Assembly: GCA_002792115.1 (NCBI GenBank)
Contig: PFNQ01000042.1
Coordinates: 36,322-75,486 of the forward strand
Direction: 5' to 3'
Length of the DNA stretch: 39,165 nucleotides
DNA from: Candidatus Woesearchaeota archaeon CG_4_10_14_0_2_um_filter_33_13
GTDB lineage: Archaea; Nanobdellota; Nanobdellia; Woesearchaeales; GW2011-AR9
Position numbers and translations under genes: made by a program. Every line of letters begins with the position of its first letter. The first letter of the stretch is position 1. Below, in pieces: positions 2,517 through 34,321 of the stretch. The notes under the pieces were generated by a model. It did no database searches. It had not been told where the DNA came from and saw only the letters and a program-made list of their open reading frames with translations.

Positions 2517-2680
2517 TGCGCCAGCCGGGACTTTCGTAATCCCCAGGTCTTATGAGCGGGAACGCGAGTGACCGCGAATCCCCCTACCAGATCTGGGAGA
2601 TCTGATTCGAACCCGAATCAACGGCTCTCCTCTTTGGAAAAAATGGAAGGCCGCTATCCTAGCCATTAGACTACTGGCGC
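2517..2680 (-). tRNA. tRNA-Gly(TCC) with two introns: 2627-2643 (17 nt, position 37/38) and 2531-2605 (75 nt, T-loop position 59/60)
   Basis: Manual cloverleaf: acceptor GCGCCAG/CTGGCGC+A73; D-arm GTC/GAT; anticodon arm GCGGC-CTTCCA-[17 nt]-A-GCCGT; variable TGAT; T-arm TCGGG-TTCGAA-[75 nt]-T-CCCGG. Mature length 72 nt. The T-loop intron has a BHB: outer GGG/CCC, central TTCG/CGAA, bulges AA|T and AG|T. Confidence 0.88.
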
Positions 2681-2699: not shown

Positions 2700-2716
2700 T
2701 TTTATTTATAAAACTT
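2700..2716 (-). promoter_or_regulatory. TATA-type promoter for tRNA-Gly
   Basis: Reverse strand reads AGTTTTATAAATAAAAC, about 27 nt upstream of G1. Confidence 0.5.
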
Positions 2717-27530: not shown

Positions 27531-27624
27531 GGGCCCGTAGCTCAGCGGTAGAGCGCCTGCCTTGCATGTTTTAATCTTAAACAGAGAAAGCAGGAGGCCT
27601 CGGGTTCAAATCCCGACGGGTCCA
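27531..27624 (+). tRNA. tRNA-Ala(TGC) with 22-nt intron at 37/38 (27567-27588)
   Basis: GGGCCCG...CGGGTCC+A acceptor with G3-U70, CCTGC-CTTGCA-[22 nt]-A-GCAGG anticodon arm, TCGGGTTCAAATCCCGA T-arm region; between 16S and 23S. Confidence 0.95.
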
Positions 27625-32839: not shown

Positions 32840-34321
32840 ATGGAAAAAGAAATCAAATTAGGACCTCCTTCACAAATAAAACAACTTAATGATTACACCT
32901 GGGAACTTCCCATTACTTACAAGAAAGGAATGTTGGTTCCTGCTAGAATTTACGCTTCTAAAGAATTAATGGATTCCATGGATGCTGGTGTTTTTGAACA
33001 AATAACTAATGTTGCTTCCTTACCTGGGATTCAAAAACATGCTTTATGTATGCCAGATGGACATTGGGGTTATGGTTTTCCTATCGGTGGAGTAGCTGCT
33101 TTTGATCCTAAAGAGGGTGGAATAATTTCTCCCGGCGGAATTGGTTTTGATATAAATTGTGGAATGCGTTTAATGACTACAAATCTTACGATTGATGAAG
33201 TTAGACCAAAAATCAAGGAATTAGTTGATGCACTATATTCTAAAGTTCCTGCCGGTGTTGGCTGTAAAGGTTTTGTTAAGGTAACTAAAGAACAATTTAA
33301 AGATGTAATGGTGAAGGGTGCTAAATGGTGTTTAGAAAATGATTATGCTTGGGCAGAAGATCTTGAGCATATTGAAGATCATGGCTGTATCCTAGGGGCT
33401 GATCCTGCTGCTGTTTCTGATCGAGCTATTAAAAGAGGATTTGATCAGTTAGGAACACTAGGTAGTGGAAATCATTATTTAGAGATTCAAGAAGTTAGAG
33501 AAGAAAATATTTTTGATAAAGAAGCTGCTAAAGCCTTAGGTATTACAAAACCAGGTCAGATTGTTATTATGGTTCATTGCGGTAGCCGTGGTTTTGGACA
33601 TCAAATCGGTAGTGACTATCTGCGTGAGTTTTTAGAAGCAATGCCAAAATATGGAATTGAGATTGTGGATAGAGAATTAGCCTGTGCTCCTTTTAATTCT
33701 CCTGAAGGTCAAAATTATTACAAAGCAATGGCCTGTGCAGCTAACATGGCTTTTGTTAATAGACAAGTTATTACTCATCGAATTAGAGAAGTTTTTTCAA
33801 GGGTTTTTGAGAAAAGTGCTAAGGAGCTAGAGATTAATCTTGTTTATGATGTTGCTCATAATATTGCTAAATTAGAAAAGCATCTCGTCAACGGAGTAGA
33901 GAAAGAATTGCTAGTGCATCGTAAAGGTGCTACCCGAGCTTTTGGTCCTCATCGTGCTAAAGACTTACCAAAAGAGTTTGCCGATTTCGGACAACCAGTT
34001 ATAATTGGTGGGTCGATGGAAACTGGTTCATGGTTGTTAGTGGGAACTGACAAAACTGATGAAGAGACTTTTTCTTCAACCGCTCACGGAGCCGGCAGAA
34101 TAATGAGTAGATTTGCTGCTATCAAAAAGTTTGATGGTGAGAATCTTGTTAAAGACATGCAAGAGAAAGGCATCTATGTTCATCCAGTTACAATGAAAGG
34201 TTTAGCGGAAGAAGCAGGCGGAGCATACAAAGATGTTGATGAAGTTATTGAAACTTTAGTATCTGCTGGTATCGCTAAGAAAGTCGTTTCTTTGAAACCA
34301 ATCGGAAATGTTAAAGGGTAA
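32840..34321 (+). CDS. rtcB: tRNA-splicing ligase RtcB
   Basis: MPDGHWGYGFPIGGVAAFDP, GGIGFDINCGMRL, LGTLGSGNHYLEIQ, HCGSRGFGHQIG, VYDVAHNIAK, HRKGATRAFGP. Confidence 0.97.
   Translation: MEKEIKLGPPSQIKQLNDYTWELPITYKKGMLVPARIYASKELMDSMDAGVFEQITNVASLPGIQKHALCMPDGHWGYGFPIGGVAAFDPKEGGIISPGGIGFDINCGMRLMTTNLTIDEVRPKIKELVDALYSKVPAGVGCKGFVKVTKEQFKDVMVKGAKWCLENDYAWAEDLEHIEDHGCILGADPAAVSDRAIKRGFDQLGTLGSGNHYLEIQEVREENIFDKEAAKALGITKPGQIVIMVHCGSRGFGHQIGSDYLREFLEAMPKYGIEIVDRELACAPFNSPEGQNYYKAMACAANMAFVNRQVITHRIREVFSRVFEKSAKELEINLVYDVAHNIAKLEKHLVNGVEKELLVHRKGATRAFGPHRAKDLPKEFADFGQPVIIGGSMETGSWLLVGTDKTDEETFSSTAHGAGRIMSRFAAIKKFDGENLVKDMQEKGIYVHPVTMKGLAEEAGGAYKDVDEVIETLVSAGIAKKVVSLKPIGNVKG

What the first reader, a model, noticed from the sequence alone, without database searches (positions are those of the whole stretch)
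2517..2680. tRNA-Gly(TCC) with two introns, one inside the T-loop
The cloverleaf is complete only if two segments are removed: 17 nt at 37/38 and 75 nt between T-loop positions 59 and 60. The second junction forms a BHB with outer helix GGG/CCC, central helix TTCG/CGAA and bulges AA|T / AG|T, giving TTCGAATCCCGG after splicing. Multi-intron tRNAs with T-loop introns are best known from Thermoproteales; here they imply a broad-specificity splicing endonuclease in a putative DPANN archaeon. Standard tRNA finders are likely to miss or misannotate it.
Basis: partly seen in the sequence, partly recalled or inferred. Interest (0 to 1): 0.82.

Follow-up and report, generated by a model that had tools for sequence, protein, structure and literature searches.

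The report
Repeated intron inside tRNA T-loops
A tRNA gene of an uncultured woesearchaeon is interrupted in its T-loop by a 75-base intron that also sits, at the same spot, in at least nine other kinds of tRNA in related archaea, so it looks like a small piece of DNA that spreads through tRNA genes and is cut out at the RNA level.

Summary
On the minus strand, 2680-2517 holds the only tRNA-Gly(UCC) found in this woesearchaeal assembly. A 72-nt cloverleaf forms only after removing 17 nt at 37/38 and 75 nt at 59/60. The second junction is a near-perfect bulge-helix-bulge (BHB). Orthologues with an empty T-loop show the predicted joined sequence, and the central helix covaries across 28 T-loop introns. 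New: the 75-nt intron belongs to a repeated family (F1) with 16 T-loop copies in 7 genomes, in tRNAs for Gly, Ser (four anticodons), Leu, Asn, Gln, Arg, Lys and probably Ile. Two F1-like copies sit at the start of gatE. A second T-loop intron type (F3, own tRNA-Ala and tRNA-Arg) has relatives outside tRNA genes. Ten of 14 copies outside T-loops have long flanking direct repeats; none of 12 tRNA-hosted copies does. Best reading: BHB introns spread among tRNA T-loops, as in Thermoproteales, now in DPANN, with hints that an insertion element is the source. The inferred broad-specificity endonuclease is not supported: EndA is a single alpha-type subunit without the extra loop, and the BHB is canonical. 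Splicing itself was not observed.

The parts
2644..2680 (-). tRNA-Gly(UCC) exon 1 (positions 1-37; anticodon UCC)
   Evidence: spliced product called tRNA-Gly(tcc) by ARAGORN
2627..2643 (-). intron 1, 17 nt, canonical position 37/38
   Evidence: ARAGORN places a 17-nt intron at 37-38 once intron 2 is removed
2606..2626 (-). exon 2 (38-59): T-stem 5' strand TCGGG (2616-2612) and T-loop TTCGAA (2611-2606; TTCG is the 5' strand of the BHB central helix)
2531..2605 (-). intron 2, 75 nt, between T-loop positions 59 and 60; member of repeated intron family F1; ends CGAA-AG (CGAA at 2536-2533 is the 3' strand of the central helix)
2517..2530 (-). exon 3 (60-73): T60, T-stem CCCGG, acceptor CTGGCGC, discriminator A
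2703..2713 (-). TATA-like box TTTTATAAATA about 23-33 nt upstream of the tRNA 5' end
   Evidence: read directly from the sequence; resemblance only, not a test of function
32840..34321 (+). RtcB, the archaeal tRNA-splicing ligase that would join the exons
   Evidence: PF01139, E = 4.5e-173

Best explanation
This is a working, essential tRNA-Gly(UCC) gene with two BHB introns. The precursor folds so that the T-stem GGG/CCC, a 4-bp helix TTCG/CGAA and two 3-nt bulges frame the 75-nt insert. EndA cuts inside both bulges and RtcB joins the exons (inferred from known archaeal chemistry; both genes are present). The 75-nt insert is one copy of a conserved ~57-nt unit plus an adapted tail (family F1) that has been inserted at 59/60 of many different tRNAs in this woesearchaeal family. 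It works like the transposed tRNA introns of Thermoproteales. Shown: the sequence family, its sites, its fold, empty and filled orthologues. Inferred: splicing, and that the spread involved movement of the unit rather than only vertical descent and gene conversion.
For: Cloverleaf and single-copy necessity. BHB at or close to the minimum free energy in 16 introns, and covariation of the central helix. The inner helix also compensates in L031 and L074 (GATTTCC with GGAATC/GGAAACT versus GATCTCC with GGAGACT). Family F1: 18 matches in 8 of 353 genomes of the order, E 1e-29 to 2e-4, 16 of them in tRNA T-loops. Removing the T-loop intron turns 16 of 19 tested genes from invisible to ARAGORN-recognisable (0 of 19 unspliced); four of the 16 get an implausible isotype because they hold further introns. 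One site, different states: the tRNA-Gly(UCC) T-loop carries F1 (G000, G015), F2 (G025, G026, G032, G041, G044), another insert (G007) or none (G016, G017, G034, G037, G048). Core identity is 0.92 both within and between genomes, the 3' tail 0.58. Copies in gatE with flanking repeats.
Against: No RNA data. Most F1 copies come from metagenome-assembled genomes; one (L011, G015) joins a Gly 5' half to a Gln-like 3' half and is probably an assembly chimera. tRNA-hosted copies show no target-site duplication (0 of 12), so their insertion mechanism is not shown. No transposase or integrase was linked to the unit, and it is absent from 2.9 million viral contigs at pattern level.
Confidence: 0.83

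Rival explanations
1. F1 spread only by gene conversion between tRNA genes (shared T-arm and flanking exon sequence) plus vertical descent; there is no mobile unit.
For: The Ser(UGA), Ser(CGA) and Ser(GGA) copies of G034 share an identical tail, and Ser(UGA) and Ser(GGA) also share a long exon stretch before the intron; no target duplications at tRNA sites.
Against: Copies within a genome are no more alike than copies between genera (0.918 vs 0.919); tRNAs as different as Gly, Asn, Leu and Lys are filled; F1-like copies also sit in gatE between direct repeats.
Confidence: 0.3
2. The conserved core is kept because the excised intron is itself a useful RNA (for example a stable circle), and the T-loop is a processing platform. 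This does not exclude the best explanation.
For: Core 92% identical across genera against 58% for the tail; a hairpin in the core varies as CGCG/CGCG and CACG/CGTG. The unrelated F2 T-loop intron also exists as stand-alone genes framed by a T-arm-like hairpin with BHB-like borders (L110, L111, L121, L124, L125) and as paralogues, several of them beside tRNA-Gly.
Against: F1 is missing from most related genomes (8 of 353), no target or guide motif was recognised, and no Rfam family matches.
Confidence: 0.3
3. The gene is a dead tRNA disrupted by an insertion.
For: The unspliced gene scores as no tRNA.
Against: It is the only tRNA-Gly(UCC) found and GGA is the commonest Gly codon; stems and BHB are intact.
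Confidence: 0.03
4. A self-splicing (group I or II) intron.
For: None beyond being an intron in a tRNA.
Against: 75 nt is far too short, and no Rfam intron family matches even at E <= 10.
Confidence: 0.01

Closest known systems
Transposed BHB tRNA introns of Thermoproteales (Fujishima et al. 2010, as described in PMC4090602 and PMC4033280; the original was not read)
   Same: Near-identical introns in different tRNA species, non-canonical positions including 59/60, multi-intron genes
   Different: Found in Woesearchaeota (DPANN); F1 seen only at 59/60 within tRNAs; a homologous unit also occurs outside tRNA genes, some copies between long direct repeats; EndA is single alpha-type, not (alpha-beta)2
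Caldiarchaeum tRNA-Thr(GGU) intron gain (PMC3293823)
   Same: Intron gain in a tRNA tied to an insertion flanked by duplicated target sequence
   Different: That model uses an integrase-bearing 1.8-kb element; here the unit is ~57 nt and no enzyme was identified
Non-canonical introns of Nanoarchaeum and ARMAN-2 (PMC4090602, PMC12397907)
   Same: DPANN-type archaea with introns outside 37/38
   Different: Those enzymes carry a second subunit or a specific loop; neither was found here
Eukaryotic introners (own knowledge)
   Same: Small units that insert widely and are removed as introns
   Different: Different splicing machinery; no transposase, and no target duplication at the tRNA sites

Membership tests
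Archaeal BHB tRNA intron | Removal restores a complete cloverleaf | tested here: met
Archaeal BHB tRNA intron | 4-bp central helix between two 3-nt bulges at the exon-intron borders | tested here: met
   in this copy the 5' inner helix starts after a short mismatch
Archaeal BHB tRNA intron | Splicing endonuclease EndA and ligase RtcB in the genome | tested here: met
Archaeal BHB tRNA intron | Spliced RNA observed | not testable with these tools
   no RNA data
Transposed tRNA introns (Thermoproteales kind) | Near-identical introns in different tRNA species | tested here: met
Transposed tRNA introns (Thermoproteales kind) | Presence/absence at the same site in related genomes | tested here: met
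Transposed tRNA introns (Thermoproteales kind) | Host belongs to Thermoproteales | tested here: not met
   Woesearchaeota; it works like that kind but is another lineage
Insertion element (MITE- or introner-like) | Copies outside tRNA genes | tested here: met
   F1-like in gatE of G017 and G018; F3-like units outside tRNA T-loops in many genomes
Insertion element (MITE- or introner-like) | Target-site duplications | tested here: inconclusive
   10 of 14 copies outside tRNA T-loops clearly, 2 borderline; 0 of 12 tRNA-hosted copies
Insertion element (MITE- or introner-like) | Mobilising enzyme | tested here: inconclusive
   reverse transcriptase in 16 of 48 genomes, not found in G000, G011, G034; transposases not searched
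Broad-specificity EndA ((alpha-beta)2 or epsilon2) | Second subunit or lineage-specific loop | tested here: not met
Group I/II self-splicing intron | Match to intron covariance models | tested here: not met

The most novel reading that the evidence does not exclude
F1 and F3 are archaeal 'introners': tiny two-hairpin mobile elements that insert at many places with long target duplications but survive best in tRNA T-loops, where the T-loop sequence pairs with the element's end to make a BHB. Some of them (as F2 suggests) are kept because the excised circle is a functional RNA.
Probability: 0.25. Interest if true: 0.85.

Novelty: new variant of a known kind. Interest (0 to 1): 0.62.

Why it matters
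How archaeal tRNA introns spread is described as unknown (PMC4090602). This family offers filled and empty sites within one archaeal family, plus related copies outside tRNAs with flanking repeats, which makes the question testable. It also means that automatic annotation of DPANN genomes can miss essential tRNAs with T-loop introns, so apparent tRNA losses there may be false. And it suggests that a plain alpha-type EndA can serve introns far from the anticodon if the BHB is canonical.

Tried and rejected
Self-splicing intron or known RNA family: no Rfam match. Viral carriage: no match of F1, F2 or F3 patterns in viral contigs. Reverse transcriptase as the mover: its distribution does not follow F1. 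Idea that duplication of the palindromic TTCGAA makes the BHB by itself: fails for TTCAAA T-loops, and no duplication is seen at tRNA sites. gatE copy as an mRNA intron: no BHB recognised by eye, and the upstream gatE copy of L079 is broken by a further insertion. Second EndA subunit: none by family model or by similarity to the alpha subunit.

Full report
What is there. On the minus strand at 2680-2517 lies a tRNA-Gly(UCC) gene. Its parts are exon 1 (2680-2644), a 17-nt intron (2643-2627), exon 2 (2626-2606), a 75-nt intron (2605-2531) and exon 3 (2530-2517). The joined exons give 72 nt with a perfect 7-bp acceptor stem. ARAGORN recognises the tRNA only when the 75-nt insert is removed. It sees nothing in the window itself, and Rfam's tRNA model gives 14.5 bits against a cut-off of 29.

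Is it a real intron. Four lines agree. First, it is needed: I rebuilt 1,329,358 of the 1,329,798 assembled bases from fetched pieces and found no other tRNA-Gly(UCC), while GGA is 44% of Gly codons in 446 long ORFs. Second, orthologues with an empty T-loop in the same family read straight through GGTTCGAATCCCGG, the predicted junction. Third, the BHB (outer helix T-stem, central helix TTCG/CGAA, bulges AA|T and AG|T) lies within 0.5 kcal/mol of the unconstrained minimum, and 16 T-loop introns of three families lie within 0-2.4 kcal/mol. Fourth, across 28 T-loop introns the last base of TTCR and its partner in the intron covary (13 G:C, 12 A:T, 3 other; Fisher p = 7.5e-7; the sequences are related, so p is only a guide). 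In that script the border for L028 is off by one and L131 was probably read in a neighbouring tRNA, which does not change the picture.

The new finding: a repeated intron family. A search with the pre-tRNA against 49 genomes of the family hit the second intron many times, mostly 79-91% identical, at up to six places in one genome. Reading these places shows the same intron at 59/60 of other tRNAs. A covariance model built from 14 copies found 18 matches in 8 of 353 genomes of the order. Sixteen are in tRNA T-loops: Gly(UCC) in G000 and G015; Ser(UGA), Ser(CGA), Ser(GCU), Ser(GGA), Leu and probably Ile in G034; Ser(GCU), Ser(CGA), Asn and Lys in G041; Ser(GCU) and Arg(CCU) in G011; Gln(UUG) in G018; Leu(UAG) in G040. 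Isotypes come from ARAGORN after removing the intron, from hand-joined exons for G034 Leu and Ile, and by eye for Ser(CGA) and G034 Ser(GCU). Of 19 test genes (16 F1 hosts, two F3 hosts, one F2 host) ARAGORN sees none unspliced and 16 after removal of the T-loop intron; four of those 16 get an implausible isotype because of further introns. A pattern scan of 85,462 species genomes found the core only in archaeal bins already in this set, most named Woesearchaeota. A degenerate pattern search of the order gave the same 8 genomes and no hits of the reversed control pattern.

How the copies relate. The first ~56 nt (core) are on average 92% identical between any two copies, equally within a genome (0.918) and between genomes (0.919), while the 3' tail is 58% identical. 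The tail pairs with the start of the core to make the inner helix and matches the T-loop. Three Ser copies in G034 share an identical tail, which suggests gene conversion among Ser genes. One copy (L011, G015) joins a Gly 5' half to a 3' half like the Gln gene of G018; after intron removal no tRNA results, so it is probably an assembly chimera between two F1 copies.

Outside tRNA T-loops. In G017 and G018 an F1-like unit lies just inside a duplicated start of gatE; the flanking repeat is 71 nt in G017 and a 20-nt stretch was aligned in G018, where the upstream copy is interrupted. A second T-loop intron type, F3, sits in tRNA-Ala(GGC) and in a tRNA-Arg(GCG) with three introns in the window's own genome. 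F3-like units also lie outside T-loops in many Woesearchaeales. Of 14 copies outside T-loops, 10 have flanking direct repeats well above shuffles and mismatched pairs, two are borderline and two have none; in most, the upstream repeat ends at the first bases of the unit. Two of the 14 are a look-alike unit at the 5' ends of two tRNA-Thr genes. None of 12 tRNA-hosted copies has such repeats. So the units behave like insertions elsewhere, but how they entered the T-loops is not shown.

Machinery. The genome has one EndA gene (212 aa; PF02778 and PF01974), best matched in the PDB by Nanoarchaeum NEQ205 and then by an archaeal tRNA endonuclease of the one-gene type, 1a79 (its type is from own knowledge). 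It lacks the NEQ205 insertion and has the conserved catalytic residues; no second gene was found. RtcB is in the window at 32840-34321.

Comparison with the known. Position 59/60 and intron transposition among tRNAs are known from Thermoproteales and other archaea (PMC4090602, PMC4033280), and intron gain by an integrating element was proposed for Caldiarchaeum (PMC3293823). In the searched library I found no report of such a family in DPANN archaea; that library misses most subscription papers. I rate this a new variant of a known kind.

What remains open. No RNA was seen. The mover is unknown: reverse transcriptases are scattered and do not follow F1, and viral contigs contain none of the patterns. 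Whether the core is conserved for movement or for a function of the excised RNA is undecided; the F2 family, with its stand-alone copies, makes the second option worth testing.

Noticed in passing
L104, L106, L109, L117, L119 (T-loop introns of tRNA-Gly(UCC)); L110, L111, L121, L124, L125 (stand-alone); L109 509-557, L119 499-533, L120, L123 (paralogues): F2: a conserved ~67-nt RNA (GGTTTAGCTTAGAAAATCCA..TGGTTA..TGTAAAACC) occurs as a T-loop intron and as stand-alone genes framed by a T-arm-like hairpin with BHB-like borders. An 8-nt stretch in it is palindromic in all copies examined (CCAATTGG, CCAGCTGG or CCACGTGG). No Rfam match.
   Followed up: partly
G000 contig C20, about 9180-8990, minus strand: tRNA-Arg(GCG) with three introns (D-loop, anticodon loop, T-loop F3) in the window's own genome; the hand-joined product is a complete cloverleaf.
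   Followed up: partly
L103 (G000:C20:45030-45107), L105, L107: tRNA-Ala(GGC) T-loop intron F3, at the same site in three genera, homologous to a dispersed unit outside tRNA genes.
   Followed up: partly
L113, L114, L118, L124, L126, L129, L132: F3-like units of about 50-80 nt between direct repeats of 25-61 nt, the upstream repeat usually ending at the unit's first bases; in L126 the repeat holds the 3' end of a tRNA.
   Followed up: partly
G000 C28:37540-37650 and C11:12200-12310: Upstream of two tRNA-Thr genes: a look-alike unit between two copies of the first ~20 bp of the tRNA gene.
   Followed up: no
L075, L079: Start of gatE duplicated around an F1-like unit in two species of one genus; in L079 a further hairpin-rich insertion splits the upstream copy.
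   Followed up: partly
L011 (G015:C45): Gly 5' exon joined through F1 to a Gln-like 3' exon; assembly chimera or real recombination.
   Followed up: no
window 27531-27624: tRNA in the 16S-23S spacer with an intron in the anticodon loop, read by eye as Ala(UGC); ARAGORN labels it Ser.
   Followed up: no
L062 (G000:C39:10433): tRNA-Gln(UUG) with an insert of roughly 45 nt near the acceptor/D-arm junction.
   Followed up: no
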